Assembly (NCBI GenBank): GCA_030698575.1
Contig: JAUYMQ010000219.1
Span: 1-12,648, forward strand
From: Deltaproteobacteria bacterium
Lineage (GTDB): Bacteria; JAUYMQ01
Direction of reading: 5' to 3'
DNA length: 12,648 nucleotides
Shown: piece after piece, positions 1 through 12,648 of the stretch
Position numbering within the stretch: position 1 is the first letter of the stretch
How the letters are laid out: every line of letters begins with the position of its first letter
Made by a program: the position numbers and the translations under genes
The notes under the pieces: generated by a model
Seen by the model: the letters and a program-made list of their open reading frames with translations, nothing else
What the model was told of the DNA's origin: nothing
The model's database searches: none

Positions 1-2328
1 CGGGCCAAAGCCGAGAGAGCCCTTGCAGAAAACGAGATGCGCCTTCGTGCCATCTTCGCATCGGCGCTCGACCCCGTGATCACCACTAACGCGGACGGGA
101 TCGTCCAGGCGGCCAGCGACTCGGTCGAACGGTGCTTCGGCTGGCATCCGCGGGAGACCTTTGGGAAGAGCATCGATCGTCTCTTCTACGAAGGGTTCCA
201 CCGCGAGTATCAGCAGGACCCCGATTCCCCTCTGCCTGCGGAGGAGAGCGGGCTCCTGGGCCATACACGGGAGATCGTCGCGCTCCGGAACGACGGCTCC
301 AGCTTTCCGTGCGAGATCTCGGTCTCCAGGGTCACGCTGCCGGGCCAGGCGGGCACCCTCTTCACGACCATCATCCGCGACATCACCGAGCGCCGTCGGT
401 CGGAGGAGCAGCGCCGGCAGCTCGTCGAGCTGATCGAGCACAGCCCGGATCTCATCGGGCTCGCGTCGATCGAGGGCAAGGCGCTTTACGTCAACCGTGC
501 AGGTCGGGAAATGGTCGGACTGGGGCCAGCCGCAGAGGTGAAACGGACCACACTGTCCGACTATATCCTTCCGGAGGATCGTAGCGAGTTCAGCAATTCC
601 GTTCTCTCTCGGGTAATCTCCGGCGGCGGCTACGTAGAGAAGGAATTCCGATTGCGTAATTTCATGACCGGAGAAGCCATACCGGCGCAGGGAAAGTTGT
701 TTCTCATCAAAGACAGCGCGACGGGGGAGCCGGTCGCCCTCGCCACGGTCACCTCCGACATCCGGAGCCGCAAGAAGGCGGAAGCGGATCTTCGAGCGTC
801 CGAGGCGCTGTTCCGGCAGTTCGTGGAGAGCCTGCCCCTGGGAATCGTCGTCCACTGTGACGGCCAGATCGTCTACGCCAACCTCTCGGCCGCGAGGCTG
901 GTCGGCGAGGCGCGCGCCGAGGATCTTCTGGGCCGGGCGGTCATCGAATTCATCCATCCCGAGGACCACCATCGCTCCAGGGCGAGGATACGCGCCATGC
1001 TGGAGAGCGGAGCGGCTGCGCCGCTTGCCGAGATCACGCTGCTGGCCCGAGACGGACGGCAGTTCACGGCCGAGATGCACACCCGCCTGATCGATTTCGA
1101 GGGACAGCGGGCCATCCTGGGCGTGTTCATGGACGTGACCGAGCGGAGGCAGATGCAGGCGCGGCTCCTCCAGGCCGACCGGCTCGCTTCCGTTGGCCTG
1201 CTTGCCGCGGGCGTCGCCCACGAGATGAACAACCCGCTCAGCTACGTGATCGCCAACCTCGACTTCGTGACCGAGCACCTGTCGCGTCGGAAGGCCCGGG
1301 ATCCGGAATCGGCGGAGCCCCCGGTGGATGCCGCCTCCCTGGAGGAACTGGAAGAGATCCTGCGCGAGGCCCGCAGCGGGGCGGAGCGCGTGAAGGTCAT
1401 TGTCAAGGATCTCAGGACCTTTTCGAGAACGGACGAGGAGACGGGCACCCCCACCGATCTGCACCCGGTGCTCGAGTCGACCGTCAACATGGCCTTCAAG
1501 GCCATCCGGACCGAGGCGCGGATCGTCAAGGACTACGGGAAGACCCCGCTCGTGGCGGGCAACGAGGCCCGTCTCGGGCAGGTCTTCATGAACCTGCTCC
1601 AGAACGCGGCCCAGGCGCTCGACAGCGCGAGGCCCGGGGGGAACGAGATCCGGCTGTCGACCCGCACGGACGACAGCGGGCGGGCCTGCATCGAGATCAG
1701 CGACACGGGACAGGGGATCGACGAGATGACCCTTCCCCGCGTCTTCGACCCGTTCTTCACGACGAAGCCGGTGGGGCTCGGCACCGGGCTGGGCCTTTCG
1801 ATCTGCCGGAACCTGCTAGAAGCGCTCGGCGGGGAGATCTCGATCACCAGCCGCCCCGGCGAGGGGACGACCGTCCGCGTGCTCCTGCCTGCGGCGGAGG
1901 CCGTGGCGCCCGCCCGATCCCGGCCCGGAGAAGCGCCCTCCGGCGCCCCCCTCCCGCGGTCCCGCGTGCTCGTCGTGGACGATGATCCTGCGCTGGGCGC
2001 CAGCCTGAAACGGGGACTCGCGGAATTTCACGACGTCGACGTCGTCGTGGGGGGCGACGAGGCCATCGCGCTTCTGCGGGAGAATCCGGCTTTCGATGTG
2101 ATTCTCTGCGACGTCATGATGCCCGGCAGAAGCGGCGGCGAGGTATACGAGACGCTTCGCGCGGAAAAGCCGGAGCTGGCTCAGCGATTCGTCTTCATGA
2201 CCGGCGGCGCGTTCACCGAGAAAGCCCGGCTGTTCCTCGAACGGGTGGACAACCCCGTCATCGAGAAGCCCTTCGACCTCGCGCACATCCGCACCTTCCT
2301 CGGCACCTTCGCGCGGCACCGGGCCTGA
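1..2328 (+). CDS. Hybrid sensor histidine kinase (PAS-PAS-PAS-HisKA-HATPase-receiver), 5' end missing
   Basis: The frame is open to the left edge, so the true start lies upstream. The ATG at 37 sits inside a PAS-linker-like helix (AENEMRLRAIF) and is not a credible start. Counting from that ATG, three PAS modules cover about residues 1-118, 122-248 and 250-372, and the first and third end in the usual D(I/V)TERR linker. HisKA follows, with the phospho-acceptor His at 395 in AHEMNNPLSY. HATPase_c has the N-box around 518-524, G1 at DTGQGID (556-562), then the F box and a GLGTGLGLSI G2 loop. An Ala/Pro linker leads to a receiver domain (643-763) with the acidic DDD at 648-650, phospho-acceptor Asp 692 and Lys 744. 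All catalytic residues are present. No membrane segment is visible in this part, so it is probably cytosolic, though the N-terminus is unseen. No DNA-binding regulator is adjacent, so the output partner and signal are unknown. Family assignment is secure. Confidence 0.93.
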   Translation, partial: RAKAERALAENEMRLRAIFASALDPVITTNADGIVQAASDSVERCFGWHPRETFGKSIDRLFYEGFHREYQQDPDSPLPAEESGLLGHTREIVALRNDGSSFPCEISVSRVTLPGQAGTLFTTIIRDITERRRSEEQRRQLVELIEHSPDLIGLASIEGKALYVNRAGREMVGLGPAAEVKRTTLSDYILPEDRSEFSNSVLSRVISGGGYVEKEFRLRNFMTGEAIPAQGKLFLIKDSATGEPVALATVTSDIRSRKKAEADLRASEALFRQFVESLPLGIVVHCDGQIVYANLSAARLVGEARAEDLLGRAVIEFIHPEDHHRSRARIRAMLESGAAAPLAEITLLARDGRQFTAEMHTRLIDFEGQRAILGVFMDVTERRQMQARLLQADRLASVGLLAAGVAHEMNNPLSYVIANLDFVTEHLSRRKARDPESAEPPVDAASLEELEEILREARSGAERVKVIVKDLRTFSRTDEETGTPTDLHPVLESTVNMAFKAIRTEARIVKDYGKTPLVAGNEARLGQVFMNLLQNAAQALDSARPGGNEIRLSTRTDDSGRACIEISDTGQGIDEMTLPRVFDPFFTTKPVGLGTGLGLSICRNLLEALGGEISITSRPGEGTTVRVLLPAAEAVAPARSRPGEAPSGAPLPRSRVLVVDDDPALGASLKRGLAEFHDVDVVVGGDEAIALLRENPAFDVILCDVMMPGRSGGEVYETLRAEKPELAQRFVFMTGGAFTEKARLFLERVDNPVIEKPFDLAHIRTFLGTFARHRA

Positions 2329-2389
2329 CGCCCCATCCCGCCCGCTCCCGCGGGGGCTGATTCGGGAAGGGCCCTGCCTCTGATCGCGC

Positions 2390-2419
2390 TTGCGACCCCG
2401 CGCCGCGGGGTGCTATAGC
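2390..2419 (+). promoter_or_regulatory. Candidate sigma70 promoter with a hairpin in its spacer
   Basis: TTGCGA (2390-2395) and TATAGC (2414-2419) are separated by 18 nt. The spacer region holds a perfect 7-bp inverted repeat (2395-2401 and 2405-2411, loop GCC), and the -10 lies in the palindrome GCTATAGC. It lies about 95 nt before the TPR gene start. The hexamers are imperfect and the inverted repeat may instead be an operator or a chance GC-rich palindrome. Confidence 0.35.
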
Positions 2420-2513
2420 TCCCCCGACCCGCGCGCCCTGATCACGCATCGGCGGACCGGCCCCCAGGGCAGGCCCGCCTTCACCTCTCCCTTTGATTCC
2501 AAAGGTTTACGCC

Positions 2514-4229
2514 ATGCGGGGGACATCCCTGCCCAAGCGAGTGACCAGCCTGGTCGGCCTCGTCGCGTTCTTGAACGCGCTCATCGTGGCCCCCCTCGCG
2601 CATGCATCCCTCACCGGCGATCTCATCACGCTCGGCAACCGCCACTATCTCAGCGGCGAGATGCCCGAGGCAGAGGAGTCCTACCAGAAGGCGCTCGGCG
2701 TCCGGCGCGAAGATCCCGTTGCTCACTACAACCTGGGCGTGGTTCTCTTCGAGACGGGAAACCTCGACGGGGCGCTGACACACTTCGAGCGATCCGCCTT
2801 CGCGGACCCCGCCCGCCCCGAAGCCTGGAACAACCTCGCAATCGTGCTCTGCGCGAAGGGGTATCTCGATCAGGCGGAGAGCGCGGCCAGGCGGGCACTC
2901 GAGAGCGATCCCGCGTTTGCCCCGGCCTACAACAATCTGGGCCTTGTGCTGGATGCCCTCAAACGACTGCCGGAGGCGCGGGAGTCGTTCGTGAACGCCG
3001 TGGGCATCGAACCGGGCCTGGCGGAAGCACAGAACAACCTTGGTGCCGCCCTGGCGCGCTCCGGTGAACTCGAGACAGCCCGGGCCGCTTTCGACCGCGG
3101 GATCCTCGCGGACGACCGGGTTGCCTACCTCTATTTCAACCGCGGGCTCCTCTCCCTCCGGAATGGCGACTACCGGGAGGCCCTGCGGGACTGGGAGCGC
3201 GCGCGACGGCTCGACCCGAACGCCGCGCCGGATTTCGTGATCGCCAGCGTGGCGCTGCAGGGGGGCGACTACGAGAAGGCCATCAGCCACTTCGAATCGG
3301 TCGACCCCGGGGGGCCGAAGCCCTCGACCCCCGTCGACCTCGACGACTTCAAGCCGCTCTTCGCTCCCTCCGGGATCGATGACCCCCGCATCCGGAAGGC
3401 CCTCGGCCAGAAGCACCGGGACGGGCGCGGGGCGCCTCCGGCGGCCGCTGCGGAAAAGCCGGTGGATCCCAAACGGCTCTCGAAGGACTATGCGGATCTG
3501 GGCCAGGTGAGCTTCGATCGCGGCCTGGATGAGCGCGCGGAGGAGCTGCTCGCCGACGCAATCCGGCTGGATCCGGACAACCTCGCGGCGCGGGAGGCGC
3601 TGGGAAGCGTGTACCTCAAGCGGGGGCGAGCCGAGGAGGCTGTCATCGTCCTCGAGCCGCTCGCAGAGCTACCCGATGTCCGGGCCGACCAGCTCGTGCT
3701 GCTCGCCGACGCCCGCTCTGAGGCCAATCAGTTGCCGGAGGCGATGCGGCTCTACGAGCGCGCCGCCCTGCTCGATCCCGGCAACGCCAAGGCGCGCATC
3801 GGCCTGGGATGGATCCAGTTCCGCGCCAACCAGAGAGAGGTGGGGATTAAGACGATCCGCCAGGGCGTCGCTCTCGCACCCAAGGACTCCTACGGACGCG
3901 TGATGCTCGCCGATACGCTGCAAATCGCCGACAAGCCGGAGCCGGCCGAGCGCGAATACCGGCGGGCGCTGCGCGCTAACCCGCGGGACGCTCGGGCGCA
4001 TGCCCACTATGCAAGTTTCCTCGTCTCCCAGTCGCGCTTCAGCGAGGCCCAGGAGCACTACGGAAAGGCCCTCGAGTTCGATCCGGACGCGGACGACGTG
4101 GCCGAGGAGATGGAGCGCCTCCGCACACGCAAGAAGGCCAAAATCAGCAACATCTGGGAAGGGATCGTGATCATGCCGCTGCTGCCGTTCATCGGGATTG
4201 CAGGCCTGATGCACAAGGTGTCGAAGTGA
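2514..4229 (+). CDS. Exported TPR-repeat protein with C-terminal hydrophobic anchor
   Basis: The ATG at 2514 is preferred over an in-frame TTG at 2493, because AAAGG lies 8 nt upstream and the protein then begins with a good Sec signal peptide (positively charged start, hydrophobic core, probable cleavage after AHA at residue 31). The 571-residue protein has about six TPR-like units over residues 35-265 and another five or so over 320-530. The usual pattern is visible (YNLGVVLFETG, WNNLAIVL, YNNLGLVLDALKR, ALEFDPD). A proline-rich, charged linker (about 264-318) separates the two blocks. A hydrophobic helix at about 548-565, rich in Ile, Pro and Leu, precedes a short basic end. I infer a periplasmic scaffold held at the inner membrane. 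TPR proteins bind partner proteins, but nothing here identifies the partner. The next gene overlaps the stop codon, so the two are probably made together. Confidence 0.88.
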   Translation: MRGTSLPKRVTSLVGLVAFLNALIVAPLAHASLTGDLITLGNRHYLSGEMPEAEESYQKALGVRREDPVAHYNLGVVLFETGNLDGALTHFERSAFADPARPEAWNNLAIVLCAKGYLDQAESAARRALESDPAFAPAYNNLGLVLDALKRLPEARESFVNAVGIEPGLAEAQNNLGAALARSGELETARAAFDRGILADDRVAYLYFNRGLLSLRNGDYREALRDWERARRLDPNAAPDFVIASVALQGGDYEKAISHFESVDPGGPKPSTPVDLDDFKPLFAPSGIDDPRIRKALGQKHRDGRGAPPAAAAEKPVDPKRLSKDYADLGQVSFDRGLDERAEELLADAIRLDPDNLAAREALGSVYLKRGRAEEAVIVLEPLAELPDVRADQLVLLADARSEANQLPEAMRLYERAALLDPGNAKARIGLGWIQFRANQREVGIKTIRQGVALAPKDSYGRVMLADTLQIADKPEPAEREYRRALRANPRDARAHAHYASFLVSQSRFSEAQEHYGKALEFDPDADDVAEEMERLRTRKKAKISNIWEGIVIMPLLPFIGIAGLMHKVSK

Positions 4230-4819
4230 CCTCATTCTCACGCCTCATGCCGGGCCCCCTGGCGCTGATTCTCTGTGCGTTGGTAGCGCTCACAGGGTGC
4301 AAGACGTTCTTCCACCTGGATCCGCTCCGTTCTCCGGATGATTTCTATCCGCTGGCCATCGGAAACCGGTGGATCTACCAGGACTCGACGGGAACCGAGA
4401 TCGAAGAGGTCATCACGGATCACATCGGTGAGTATTTCTACAACGGGAAGACTCGCCTGGGCACCGCGCACGTGACGACGGGTGTCATGCAGGCAAACTT
4501 TCACAAGGGCATCGCCCGCTCCCCTCGCCATCTCATCAAGCTGCCTCTCACGATTGGCGCAATATGGACCGCAGAGGACCTGATCTACGAGGTCAGCGAC
4601 ACGAAGAAGCGCGTTCAGGTCCCAGCCGGAATCTTCGAGAACTGCCTCGAGATTCGTGTAAGGCACCGCCGGGAATTCGTCACGAACCGCGAGAAGGGGG
4701 CGATCGAGACCTACGTGACAGTCACCTTCGCCCCTGGCGTGGGCCCCGTCGAATGGGCGACGCGGCAGGGCAACCGCATCATCTACCGCAAACAGCTTCT
4801 GAGCTACTACCTCGCCTGA
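4226..4819 (+). CDS. Putative lipoprotein of unknown function
   Basis: The GTG start overlaps the TGA of the TPR gene (GTGA), with AAGG about 7 nt upstream inside that gene, which indicates translational coupling. An ATG seven codons later (4247) is an alternative. The 197-residue product starts with a lipoprotein signal peptide: a hydrophobic stretch ending in the lipobox LTGC with Cys 25. The residue after Cys is Lys, not Asp, which by the E. coli sorting rule favours the outer membrane. The mature part resembles a common type of small exported protein, with a 'FYPLAIGNRWIYQD' opening, 'GIFENCLEIRV' in the middle and 'TFAPGVGPVEW' near the end. I recognise this pattern but know no function for it. 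Coupling to the TPR protein suggests that the two act together in the envelope. Confidence 0.85.
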   Translation: MTSFSRLMPGPLALILCALVALTGCKTFFHLDPLRSPDDFYPLAIGNRWIYQDSTGTEIEEVITDHIGEYFYNGKTRLGTAHVTTGVMQANFHKGIARSPRHLIKLPLTIGAIWTAEDLIYEVSDTKKRVQVPAGIFENCLEIRVRHRREFVTNREKGAIETYVTVTFAPGVGPVEWATRQGNRIIYRKQLLSYYLA

Positions 4820-9156: not shown

Positions 9157-9879
9157 ATGATGAGAGCTTGGGGCGAAGCCCGTCGCGGCCTTCCAGCGCT
9201 TCTCCTTGCACTGGCCATCGCGGGGATCGGTATGCCTGGCGCCGCACAGGGCGAGATCTTCAAGTGGATCGACGACAAGGAGGTGGCTCACTACACCTCC
9301 AACCGCGCCAGCATCCCGATCAAGTACCAGGATACCGTCAAGCTCGTGGAAACACGGGCTGACCCCGGCCTCTACCGGACCCTCGATATTGCGCTGCCGG
9401 AAGGCCCCGTCCCCGGCTTCGAGGAAGAGCCCCTGGCGCCCGAAGGCGACGCGCCGCGAAGGACGGGCGGCACGGACGTGGTCGGCGACATCCTTCAGGG
9501 AGAGGCTGCGGGGGCGCCCGCCGCAAGCGCCGCCCGGCAGGCGGCCCCTCGCCCGGCAATCCGGCGCACGGCACGCCTCGGGTTGCGCGAGTACGTCGGG
9601 AAGGGAGAGGCCTGGTGGCAGGCCCAGTTCGCCCAGGCGAACGCGCTCGTGAGCAAGCAGCAGCAAATCGTTGACGCCCACCGCAACCAGCTCAGGAAGA
9701 TCATCAAGTCGCACTCGAGCGGCAACGAGGTGCTCCCCCTCGAGGACAACCCGGATTTTCAGAAGCTCTCCCGGATCCTCCCGCGTGAGGAGAGTCGGCT
9801 GAATCAGCACAAGCGCGACCTTCGCAGGCTCGATGCGCGCGCCACGGAGTTGCGCGTCCCGGAATCCTGGAGAGAATGA
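9157..9879 (+). CDS. Exported DUF4124 protein with C-terminal coiled coil
   Basis: Two consecutive ATGs (9157 and 9160) follow AGGAGAG; either may be used. The product has 240 residues. The signal peptide covers about 1-32 (basic start, Leu/Ala core, cleavage near AQG). DUF4124 follows at about 33-60 (EIFKWIDDKEVAHYTS), where the sequence has the aromatic-Asp core but lacks the usual Gly after Asp. An Ala/Pro/Gly-rich linker runs from about 83 to 140. The C-terminal third (about 148-232) is charged and helical, starting with GEAWWQAQF and ending in VPESW. This is the common layout of DUF4124 proteins that carry a 'YWR' helix pair. The role is unknown; it is probably periplasmic. It lies 67 bp after the TlpA-like lipoprotein gene and is probably in the same transcript. 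The DUF4124 gene at 5529-6131 shares only the domain, not the C-terminal part. Confidence 0.85.
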   Translation: MMRAWGEARRGLPALLLALAIAGIGMPGAAQGEIFKWIDDKEVAHYTSNRASIPIKYQDTVKLVETRADPGLYRTLDIALPEGPVPGFEEEPLAPEGDAPRRTGGTDVVGDILQGEAAGAPAASAARQAAPRPAIRRTARLGLREYVGKGEAWWQAQFAQANALVSKQQQIVDAHRNQLRKIIKSHSSGNEVLPLEDNPDFQKLSRILPREESRLNQHKRDLRRLDARATELRVPESWRE

Positions 9880-10257: not shown

Positions 10258-10379
10258 GCGCCGGCGCGTGACGTCCCCCTCGATATTGTAGATAGCTGAC
10301 GACCCCGGGAATCCCGTCTCCGCTGCGCCACCATTCTTTGCCTCGACACTCGCCGCCCCAGACCGCTCGCGCAGACCAC

Positions 10380-10397
10380 GGGAGGAACTGTTTCTTG
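10380..10397 (+). promoter_or_regulatory. Shine-Dalgarno that sets a TTG start
   Basis: GGGAGGA (10380-10386) is followed after 8 nt by TTG (10395-10397). This is the strongest ribosome-binding site near the 5' end of the metallopeptidase frame and decides the start used below. Confidence 0.65.
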
Positions 10398-10823
10398 AAC
10401 TGGGACAGGTTCAGCGAGGAAGAGAGGGAGATTCTTGAACGGCTCGATCACCACGCCCGGCTGCTGGCTGGCAGGTTCGGGTTGCCACTCGCCCATCTCA
10501 CCAGGGAAAGCGGCCGGGTCAAGCGCCGGTACGGCAGCTGTGACGTGAATGGCGTGATCCGGCTCCGGCTTCATGACCGGCGGAACGGGGCATTCCTGAA
10601 GTACTCGTCGCTCATCGCCACCCTCTGTCACGAACTCGCTCACCTGAAGCATCTCAACCACGGAATACGCTTCCGCGCGCTCTACATGCAGATCCTCGAG
10701 TACGCTCGCGCCGCCGGGATCTACCGCCCGCGGGCCGTCATCTCCCCGGGGAAGGACGACCCCGGGAGAGAGGCCCGGGAAGCGACGCCCGGGGGGAGTC
10801 CCCCGGCGGCCGCTCGGCGCTGA
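10395..10823 (+). CDS. YgjP/DUF45-type zinc metallopeptidase-like protein
   Basis: With the TTG start at 10395 the product has 142 residues; a TTG at 10338 in the same frame would add 19 residues of no clear pattern and lacks a good ribosome-binding site. The active-site motif is CHELAHLKHLNH: His 79, Glu 80 and His 83 form HExxH, and His 89 is a probable third zinc ligand. Upstream, RRYGSCDVNGVIRLRL (from about 44) matches the conserved 'WGSC...G.I.LN' strand of the YgjP-like family, here with Tyr in place of Trp. At 142 residues it is shorter than typical YgjP proteins (well over 200 residues) and covers mainly the catalytic part. The last 25 residues are low-complexity Pro/Gly/Ala/Arg. No signal peptide is seen, so it is expected to be cytoplasmic. 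YgjP-like proteins are predicted metal-dependent proteases; their substrates are not well known. It precedes the F420 operon but shares no obvious function with it. Confidence 0.82.
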   Translation: MNWDRFSEEEREILERLDHHARLLAGRFGLPLAHLTRESGRVKRRYGSCDVNGVIRLRLHDRRNGAFLKYSSLIATLCHELAHLKHLNHGIRFRALYMQILEYARAAGIYRPRAVISPGKDDPGREAREATPGGSPPAAARR

Positions 10824-10872: not shown

Positions 10873-10902
10873 TTGATCCACCCCCCGCGCCCCGCCTATA
10901 CT
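10873..10902 (+). promoter_or_regulatory. Sigma70-like promoter for the cof operon
   Basis: TTGATC (10873-10878), an 18-nt C-rich spacer and TATACT (10897-10902) lie in the gap between the metallopeptidase gene and cofD. Transcription would start near 10909, about 100 nt before the cofD ATG. No terminator was seen after the preceding gene, so read-through may add to this. Confidence 0.6.
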
Positions 10903-11010
10903 CGCGCTCGGAAAGCCGCCGCCTCTGCCGGGCCGGCGAGTGCGGCGAACCACATCCCTCTGCCGTTCCGGGCCGGCCCGCCGAGCGGGGAGTCGACGCG
11001 CGTGAAGACA

Positions 11011-11940
11011 ATGAAGCTCGCGGTCCTCGCCGGAGGTGTGGGGGCGGCCCGTTTTCTGAGGGGACTCTCGGGCGTGACCGACCCGCAAAGCCTCACCGCC
11101 ATCGTCAATACTGCGGATGATTTCCTCCATTTCGGCCTCCACATATCGCCCGACATCGACACCGTCTGTTACACGCTCGCCGGAATCGTGGACGAGGCAA
11201 GAGGCTGGGGCGTGGGTGGAGACGGAACGGCATGCCTCGAGATGCTCAGCCGCCTCGGCGAGGAGACATGGTTTCAACTGGGCGACCGTGACCTGGCGTT
11301 GCATCTGACCCGCACGCGCCGGCTCGGCGAGGGAGCGCCACTCTCGGCGGTCACGGAGGAGATCCGGTCCGCCCTCGGCGTTCCCGTCGCCATCCTTCCC
11401 GTCACGGATGATCCCGTCGCCACCGAAATCGAAACGCCCGAGGGCACCCTTCCCTTCCAGGAATACTTCGTGCGCCGCGCGTGCCGTGACAAGGTCCTCG
11501 GTGTCAGCTTTCGCGGCGCCGAGCAGGCGCGCCCGGCCCCCGGGGTGCGGGAAGCCCTCGCCTCGGCCGCCGGCATCGTTATCTCCCCTTCGAACCCGGT
11601 TGTGAGCATCGCGCCAATCCTGGCGGTACCGGGGCTGCTTGACGCCATCGCCGAGAGCGGGGCGCCCGTCGTGGCCATCTCGCCCATCATTGGCGGAAGG
11701 ACCGTGAAGGGGCCGGCGGCGAACATGCTCCGCGATCTCGGACACGAGGCGAGCGCCCTGGGGGTGGCGCGGCTCTACGAAAAGCTGGCGACCACCTTCG
11801 TGCTCGACACGGTCGACGCGCCGCTCGCGCCGGCAATCGAGTCGCTCGGCATGAGGGTCCTCGTGTGCGACACGCTCATGGCCGACGCCGAACGGGCAAG
11901 GCGCCTGGCCACGGCGGTCGTCGGGCTCATCCGGCCATGA
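11011..11940 (+). CDS. cofD: CofD, phospho-3-carbon-acid transferase of F420 biosynthesis
   Basis: CofD transfers the phospho-lactyl or phosphoenolpyruvyl group from its GDP- or GPP-activated form to Fo (7,8-didemethyl-8-hydroxy-5-deazariboflavin), giving F420-0 or dehydro-F420-0, in the cytoplasm. The 309 residues show the family pattern throughout: LAGGVGAARFLRGL at the N-terminus (nucleotide-binding loop), NTADDF at 33-38, HISPDIDTVCYTLAG at 44-58, QLGDRDLALHL, LPVTDDPV, SPSNPVVSIAPIL and SPIIGG. The ATG at 11011 gives the usual start MKLAVLAGG. A GTG at 11002 (three residues longer, with GGGGAG 9 nt upstream) is equally possible. The stop overlaps the cofC start (ATGA), so the two are translationally coupled. 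Family assignment is secure; the acyl group used is not decided by what I can read. Confidence 0.95.
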   Translation: MKLAVLAGGVGAARFLRGLSGVTDPQSLTAIVNTADDFLHFGLHISPDIDTVCYTLAGIVDEARGWGVGGDGTACLEMLSRLGEETWFQLGDRDLALHLTRTRRLGEGAPLSAVTEEIRSALGVPVAILPVTDDPVATEIETPEGTLPFQEYFVRRACRDKVLGVSFRGAEQARPAPGVREALASAAGIVISPSNPVVSIAPILAVPGLLDAIAESGAPVVAISPIIGGRTVKGPAANMLRDLGHEASALGVARLYEKLATTFVLDTVDAPLAPAIESLGMRVLVCDTLMADAERARRLATAVVGLIRP

Positions 11941-12599
11941 AGCGCCCGCCCGTGCACGTCCTGATCCCCGTGAAGACCCCCCAACGCGCCAAGGGGCGCC
12001 TGGCCGAGCTACTTTCCCCGGCGGCACGCGGGGAGCTGGCGCGCGCGATGCTCCGCGACGTTCTGCGCGCGGCGAAGGCGGCCCGCGGCGTCCCGGAAGT
12101 GTGGGTGGTGAGTCACGACCGGTCGGTGCTGGCGGAAGCAGCCGGATGGGGAGCCCGATGCCTCGAAGAGAAGACCGATATGGGCCTCAATCCGGCGCTG
12201 CGGTTCGCCACGCGCATGGTCAGGGAAGCGGGAGCGCCCGCCCTGCTCATCCTGCCGTCCGACATCCCGCTTGTCCGACCCGGGGATATCGAGCGCCTGC
12301 TCACCTCCCTCAACCGGCGACCAGCCGATGGCCGGCTGGTTGTCGGAGTTCCCTCCAAGGAGGGAACCGGGACCAACGCGCTGCTCCGCGTGCCGCCGGA
12401 CGTCATACCGCCGAGCTTCGGAAAGCAGAGTTTCGAGCGGCACGAGCGCCAGGCCGCCCGCCGCAACACGCCCTTCCGCAAGCGGCGAATCGCCCGCATC
12501 GCCCTCGACGTCGACACGCCTCGGGATCTGCTTTCGCTCCTGTCCCTCGAGCGGAGGGGCCACACGGCCCGCGTTCTCGGCCAGCTGGGGCTTATCTAG
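11937..12599 (+). CDS. cofC: CofC/FbiD, guanylyltransferase of F420 biosynthesis
   Basis: CofC activates a phosphorylated 3-carbon acid with GTP (2-phospho-L-lactate in archaea, phosphoenolpyruvate in mycobacteria, 3-phospho-D-glycerate in Paraburkholderia rhizoxinica) and hands the product to CofD. The ATG at 11937 overlaps the cofD stop by 4 nt. The product has 220 residues and a GT-A-like nucleotidyltransferase fold. Visible motifs are IPVKTPQRAKGRL (10-22), MGLNPAL (82-88), LPSDIPLV (106-113, metal-binding Asp), PSKEGTGTNALL (139-150) and FGKQSFERH (161-169). All are typical of the family. Which substrate is used cannot be told from these motifs. An in-frame ATG further upstream (11865) lies inside cofD and is not expected to be used. 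Confidence 0.94.
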   Translation: MKRPPVHVLIPVKTPQRAKGRLAELLSPAARGELARAMLRDVLRAAKAARGVPEVWVVSHDRSVLAEAAGWGARCLEEKTDMGLNPALRFATRMVREAGAPALLILPSDIPLVRPGDIERLLTSLNRRPADGRLVVGVPSKEGTGTNALLRVPPDVIPPSFGKQSFERHERQAARRNTPFRKRRIARIALDVDTPRDLLSLLSLERRGHTARVLGQLGLI

Positions 12600-12600
12600 C

Positions 12601-12648
12601 ATGAAAGAACTGCGTGTCTTCGCCGTGACCGGCGTCCCCCCCATCCTG
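12601..12648 (+). CDS. cofE: CofE, coenzyme F420:L-glutamate ligase, N-terminus only
   Basis: The ATG at 12601 follows the cofC stop by 1 nt, with GGGG about 10 nt upstream, and the frame runs open to the right edge. Only 16 residues are visible, MKELRVFAVTGVPPIL. They resemble the CofE start, where a short strand precedes a 'G(I/L)PE(I/V)' turn. CofE adds glutamates to F420-0 using GTP. The call rests mainly on position after cofD and cofC; the sequence agrees but is too short to prove it. Whether a nitroreductase-like domain is fused at the C-terminus, as in actinobacterial FbiB, cannot be seen. Confidence 0.72.
   Translation, partial: MKELRVFAVTGVPPIL

What the first reader, a model, noticed from the sequence alone, without database searches (positions are those of the whole stretch)
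10873..12648. F420 biosynthesis operon (cofD-cofC-cofE) in a probable Gram-negative
cofD, cofC and the start of cofE are tightly coupled (ATGA overlap, then a 1-nt gap) behind their own promoter. F420 is best known from archaea and Actinobacteria; its spread into Gram-negative lineages is less studied. Outside Actinobacteria the acyl donor differs between groups (lactate, PEP or glycerate type), so the cofactor made here could be any of these.
Basis: partly seen in the sequence, partly recalled or inferred. Interest (0 to 1): 0.6.

Follow-up and report, generated by a model that had tools for sequence, protein, structure and literature searches.

The report
F420 cofactor operon, uncultured Gram-negative bacterium
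The end of this stretch carries genuine, tightly packed genes for making coenzyme F420 in a deep-branching, uncultured Gram-negative bacterium; it is a sound but ordinary new case of a pathway already known to be scattered across bacteria, with one loose end about how the side chain is made.

Summary
cofD (ATG 11011, stop 11940) overlaps cofC (11937-12599) by ATGA. cofE starts at 12601 after a 1-nt gap and is cut by the contig end after 16 codons. CofD and CofC pass the curated NCBIfam cut-offs for the F420 enzymes. Base 10873 is the -35 box of a promoter-like site, not the cofD start.

The same MAG encodes FO synthase (fused fbiC, plus separate cofG and cofH), a CofE fragment, NADPH:F420 reductase, about 14 LLM oxidoreductases and 2-3 F420H2 quinone-reductase-family proteins. 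RpoB and LpxC make it a diderm on the Proteobacteria/Acidobacteria side; no phylum-mate is held.

New here: CofC carries the L/L/T/G pocket of 2-phospholactate/PEP enzymes, so 3PG-F420 is unlikely. The dehydro-F420 reductase FbiE, present beside the operon in the nearest relative, was not found, so PEP versus 2-phospholactate stays open.

Verdict: a new member of a known kind, low to moderate interest.

The parts
10873..10902 (+). promoter-like site TTGATC-18-TATACT upstream of cofD
   Evidence: 9/12 consensus matches, 1 found vs mean 0.0 in shuffles; function not shown
11011..11940 (+). cofD (fbiA homologue): 2-phospholactate/PEP-guanosine : FO phosphotransferase, 309 aa
   Evidence: TIGR01819 305.9 bits (cut-off 257.45); PF01933 172.5 bits; PDB 3c3d E 9.4e-65 and 6uvx E 1.1e-52; sole copy in genome
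11937..12599 (+). cofC (fbiD homologue): guanylyltransferase activating the C3 phospho-acid, 220 aa; overlaps cofD by ATGA
   Evidence: TIGR03552 168 bits (cut-off 105); PDB 7p97 E 2e-19, 6bwg E 8e-14, 2i5e E 2e-9; catalytic Asp/Lys/Ser/Thr conserved, pocket L/L/T/G
12601..12648 (+). start of cofE (F420-0:gamma-glutamyl ligase), first 16 codons only; contig ends
   Evidence: sequence; the only CofE match in the genome is the C-terminal 140 aa at contig C566:3-425 (L114), consistent with the other end of the same gene across an assembly gap

Best explanation
An F420-0 assembly operon, cofD-cofC-cofE, transcribed together. CofC joins a three-carbon phospho-acid (2-phospholactate or PEP, not 3-phosphoglycerate) to GMP from GTP. 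CofD transfers the phospho-acid to FO. CofE adds the gamma-glutamyl tail. FO comes from CofG/CofH (or FbiC) encoded elsewhere in the genome, and the cofactor serves an NADPH:F420 reductase plus LLM- and Ddn-type oxidoreductases. I lean to PEP (about 0.55) over 2-phospholactate (about 0.35), because the nearest relative carries the dehydro-F420 reductase FbiE directly after cofE. That reductase was not found in this MAG, so this sub-claim is weak. Shown: gene identities, order, pocket residues, gene complement. Inferred: co-transcription, activity, acyl donor, physiological use.
For: Equivalog-level hits for CofD and CofC and alignment to the solved CofC/FbiD and CofD/FbiA chains. Complete pathway in the same genome: FbiC 1145 bits (cut-off 1018), CofG 426 and CofH 475 bits, CofE fragment 166 bits over 104-244 of 244. 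Users: NpdG 211 bits (cut-off 149.8); 9 of 13 scanned LLM proteins above the cut-off of an F420-dependent LLM subfamily; PF04075 139 and 133 bits, with none of the 14 control genomes matching. The D-C-E order recurs in Thermomicrobiales, Chloroflexia and Rubrobacter MAGs and, by reading L070, in the nearest RpoB relative. CofC pocket residues equal those of Mtb FbiD except I to L (PMC8764529).
Against: cofE is split between two contigs that were not shown to be joined. No FbiE: the best nitroreductase scores 67 bits on the FbiE profile, while FbiE genes beside cof operons score 221 or more and the next score is 50. The genome is a 653-contig MAG, 91.6% complete and 4.6% contaminated, with two FO synthase sets of different origin, so one set may be foreign. 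Eight of 80 sampled contigs, all under 3 kb, read as N, so absence is not proof.
Confidence: 0.9

Rival explanations
1. The operon makes 3PG-F420 from 3-phosphoglycerate, as in Mycetohabitans.
For: The genome is Gram-negative, and the only proven 3PG-F420 producers are Gram-negative (PMC8764529); no FbiE was found, and 3PG-F420 needs none.
Against: All four positions tied to 3-PG use differ: M91 to L, C95 to L, H145 to T, S162 to G. S162 mutants other than S162T lost the 3-PG preference in Mycetohabitans rhizoxinica CofC (PMC8764529).
Confidence: 0.03
2. The operon makes F420 directly from 2-phospho-L-lactate, as in archaea, with no reductase step (a variant within the best explanation).
For: No FbiE in the readable genome, while the FbiE profile separates cleanly. 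2-PL is the best CofC substrate in most assays (PMC8764529).
Against: Bacterial CofDs tested with their own CofC prefer EPPG from PEP (Msmeg) or shift toward it (Entotheonella) (PMC8764529). 2-PL is not thought abundant in most organisms (PMC7253369). Nearest relative L070 has FbiE after cofE.
Confidence: 0.35
3. The window contig is a contaminant in the MAG, so the pathway does not belong to the RpoB-defined organism.
For: 4.6% contamination; two FO synthase sets, one (C202) of the fused proteobacterial type.
Against: C599 lies inside the tetranucleotide and GC3 cloud of the bin. It carries the only CofD. The CofE fragment's highest identity, 61%, is to L070, the sister by RpoB.
Confidence: 0.07
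4. The genes are relics or serve only FO-related photolyase chemistry.
For: FO alone can serve as a photolyase chromophore (PMC8498797).
Against: Intact reading frames, conserved catalytic residues, cofE present, and many F420-dependent oxidoreductase families in the genome.
Confidence: 0.02

Closest known systems
cofD-cofC-cofE operons of Thermomicrobiales/Chloroflexia and Rubrobacter
   Same: Same gene order, often with ATGA-type overlaps (e.g. L023, L007); CofD 53-56% identical
   Different: The window CofD is a lone deep branch outside their clade; some of these loci have FbiE within reach (L005, L013, L017, L061), this genome has none found
Deltaproteobacteria MAG NC_groundwater_360_Ag_B (L070)
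   Same: Nearest by RpoB (73%); cofD-cofC-cofE in the same order; CofE 61% identical
   Different: L070 has npdG before cofD and FbiE after cofE; its CofC has E, not G, at the S162 position
Mycobacterial FbiA/FbiD (PEP route, via dehydro-F420-0)
   Same: CofC pocket matches Mtb FbiD at L92, T and G163 positions
   Different: CofE ends without a fused FbiB C-terminal domain, and no FbiE orthologue was found
3PG-F420 pathway of Mycetohabitans
   Same: Same enzyme families
   Different: All four 3-PG-associated positions differ
Alphaproteobacterial fbiC-npdG-cofE-cofD-cofC clusters
   Same: The genome's C202 fbiC-npdG resembles them (about 60% identity)
   Different: Different gene order around cofD, and the window CofD falls outside their clade

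Membership tests
CofD / 2-phospholactate transferase (TIGR01819, PF01933) | score above the curated equivalog cut-off, full length | tested here: met
   305.9 bits vs 257.45, 2-300 of 301
CofC / guanylyltransferase (TIGR03552, PF01983) | score above the curated equivalog cut-off | tested here: met
   168 bits vs 105
CofC / guanylyltransferase (TIGR03552, PF01983) | metal-binding Asp triad, substrate Lys and carboxylate-binding Thr/Ser | tested here: met
   D116, D191, D193, K20, K26, T147, S165 equivalents all conserved
CofE (TIGR01916) | full-length match over cut-off | tested here: inconclusive
   16 codons in the window; C-terminal 140 aa on C566 scores 166 bits vs 180.65 as a fragment
3-PG-type CofC (Mycetohabitans) | Ser/Thr at position 162 (with M91, C95, H145) | tested here: not met
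   G at 162; L, L, T at the others
PEP route (FbiA/FbiD/FbiE or FbiB) | dehydro-F420-0 reductase FbiE or FbiB C-terminal domain in the genome | tested here: inconclusive
   Not found: TIGR03553 best 33 bits vs 249.55; operon-FbiE profile best 67 bits vs 221 or more for operon FbiE. Absence is not settled because the genome is incomplete and partly masked
PEP route (FbiA/FbiD/FbiE or FbiB) | in vitro turnover of PEP by the cognate CofC/CofD pair | not testable with these tools
   needs enzyme assay
2-phospholactate route | source of 2-phospho-L-lactate (CofB activity) | not testable with these tools
   CofB enzyme described only as putative in PMC7253369
F420-producing organism | FO synthase (CofG+CofH or FbiC) | tested here: met
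F420-producing organism | F420-dependent enzymes | tested here: met
   NpdG, LLM subfamilies, PF04075; family names, not tested function
F420-producing organism | cofactor detected chemically | not testable with these tools
   needs mass spectrometry
Gram-negative (diderm) host | LPS synthesis gene lpxC and RpoB placement | tested here: met
   LpxC 368 bits, matching only diderm control genomes; RpoB with L070 (98) in the Proteobacteria/Acidobacteria clade (99)

The most novel reading that the evidence does not exclude
A bacterium of a lineage with no held phylum-mate makes classical F420 without FbiE: either from 2-phospholactate, a route so far established only for archaea, or from PEP with an unrecognised dehydro-F420 reductase.
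Probability: 0.3. Interest if true: 0.5.

Novelty: new member of a known kind. Interest (0 to 1): 0.27.

Why it matters
Which acyl donor non-actinobacterial bacteria use for F420, and what they do with it, is listed as open in the field's review (PMC8498797). This genome adds a deep-branching Gram-negative lineage with a full gene set, a clearly non-3-PG CofC and no detectable FbiE. That is a concrete test case for whether FbiE is always needed in bacteria. The operon itself is expected from known distribution.

Tried and rejected
Unrelated nucleotidyltransferase for CofC: rejected by the equivalog score and conserved pocket. YvcK-type CofD relative: 43.5 bits vs cut-off 196. The C651 nitroreductase as FbiE: rejected as an orthologue, since 67 bits on the FbiE profile is below nitroreductases in the PDB that are not FbiB, such as 3gfa at 128 bits, and its own PDB search does not bring up FbiB. 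Tetranucleotide and GC3 analysis to decide whether C202 (fbiC-npdG) is foreign: C202 is only a mild outlier, no verdict. The first RpoB tree used wrong-frame ORFs for some rows and was rebuilt. The two first family scans used a wrong frame. Naming the organism: no held genome shares its phylum, so only RpoB placement was possible. Structure prediction was not run because sequence families already settle the identities.

Full report
What is in the sequence. The window is the complete contig C599 of a 4.13 Mb, 653-contig MAG, 91.6% complete and 4.6% contaminated. At its right end three genes run on the + strand: cofD (ATG 11011 to stop 11940, 309 aa), cofC (11937-12599, 220 aa, ATGA overlap) and the first 16 codons of cofE (ATG 12601, 1-nt gap), cut by the contig end.

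What the genes are. CofD scores 305.9 bits on the NCBIfam equivalog TIGR01819 (cut-off 257.45) and CofC 168 bits on TIGR03552 (cut-off 105). Among solved structures CofD matches M. mazei CofD (3c3d) and mycobacterial FbiA (6uvx); CofC matches Mycetohabitans CofC (7p97), Mtb FbiD (6bwg) and M. mazei CofC (2i5e). The only CofE match in the genome is a C-terminal 140 aa at the left edge of contig C566. It ends without a fused FbiB-type domain and no nitroreductase follows. It is probably the other end of the window's cofE, with roughly 90 codons missing between the contigs; this was not proven.

The rest of the pathway. FO synthase is present twice: a fused FbiC of 801 aa on C202 (1145 bits on NF006687, cut-off 1018), followed directly by npdG, and separate CofG (C467) and CofH (C328). 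C202 FbiC groups with proteobacterial fused FbiC (100/100; about 60% identity), while the CofG/CofH pair does not. C202 may be a contaminant or a transferred gene; composition does not decide. Users of the cofactor: a full NpdG on C638 (211 bits), about 14 LLM genes, of which 13 were scanned and 9 exceed the cut-off of an F420-dependent LLM subfamily, and two strong plus one partial PF04075 proteins. A PPOX-type Rv1155-like protein falls just below its cut-off (78.2 vs 79.05). These are family assignments, not tested functions.

The organism. No other genome of its phylum is held. A tree of RpoB places it as sister (98) of L070, a groundwater MAG labelled Deltaproteobacteria (73% identity), inside a clade with Proteobacteria and Acidobacteria (99). 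LpxC is present (368 bits). So 'Gram-negative' stands.

Acyl donor. Hasan et al. (PMC8764529) tied 3-PG use in CofC to S162, M91, C95 and, for engineering, H145. The window CofC has G, L, L and T there, as Mtb FbiD has G, L, I and T; all catalytic positions are kept. Of 65 related CofCs with a letter at position 162, 64 have G, one (L070) has E, none has S or T. 3PG-F420 is therefore unlikely. PEP and 2-phospholactate cannot be told apart from CofC alone (PMC8764529).

The PEP route needs the dehydro-F420 reductase FbiE or the FbiB C-terminal domain. A profile of nitroreductases from cof operons (A1) has Mtb FbiB as its best solved structure (160 bits). Among the 80 related loci the hits split cleanly: 23 at 221 bits or more, the next at 50 (15 of the 23 loci supplied the profile rows, the other 8 score 221-293). 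In this genome the best is 67 bits (C651) and TIGR03553 gives 33 bits. FbiE was thus not found, although L070 has it right after cofE. Part of the genome is missing or masked, so this is an open point rather than a finding.

Evolution. The window CofD is at most 56% identical to any CofD fetched here and is a lone, deep branch; it is not in the alphaproteobacterial clade. This fits the published picture of mixed vertical and horizontal spread (PMC8498797). No direction of transfer is claimed.

Verdict. The observation and the core interpretation are right. It is a new member of a known kind. F420 genes are already recorded in several Gram-negative and candidate phyla (PMC8498797). The one point worth following is the missing FbiE.

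Noticed in passing
G000:C202 (L111) 437-3354; C467 (L113) 1079-2269; C328 (L112) 1670-3058: Two FO synthase sets in one MAG: a fused fbiC followed directly by npdG, and split cofG and cofH on other contigs; one set may be foreign or recently acquired.
   Followed up: partly
L016 8939-10324 (+): A 461-aa ORF in a Rubrobacteraceae MAG matches both CofC and CofE, a possible CofC-CofE fusion.
   Followed up: no
L070 354-3274 (+): The nearest RpoB relative has npdG-cofD-cofC-cofE-FbiE; its cofD appears frameshifted near the 3' end in this assembly, and its CofC has E at the S162 position, unlike the G of all other related CofCs read.
   Followed up: partly
L073 (Pseudorhodoplanes MAG), downstream of cofC: An alphaproteobacterial F420 cluster carries an FbiE-type nitroreductase (234 bits), while the other proteobacterial clusters fetched show none nearby.
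   Followed up: no
window 10338-10823 (+): Short putative metallopeptidase (WLM/YgjP-like) just upstream of the cofD promoter-like site.
   Followed up: no
window 4226-4819 (+) and 9157-9879 (+): Two predicted proteins with no Pfam match at E up to 0.01.
   Followed up: no
window 1-2328 (+): Multi-PAS hybrid histidine kinase with a receiver domain, nearest in NCBIfam to Myxococcus EspA/EspC but far below their cut-offs.
   Followed up: no
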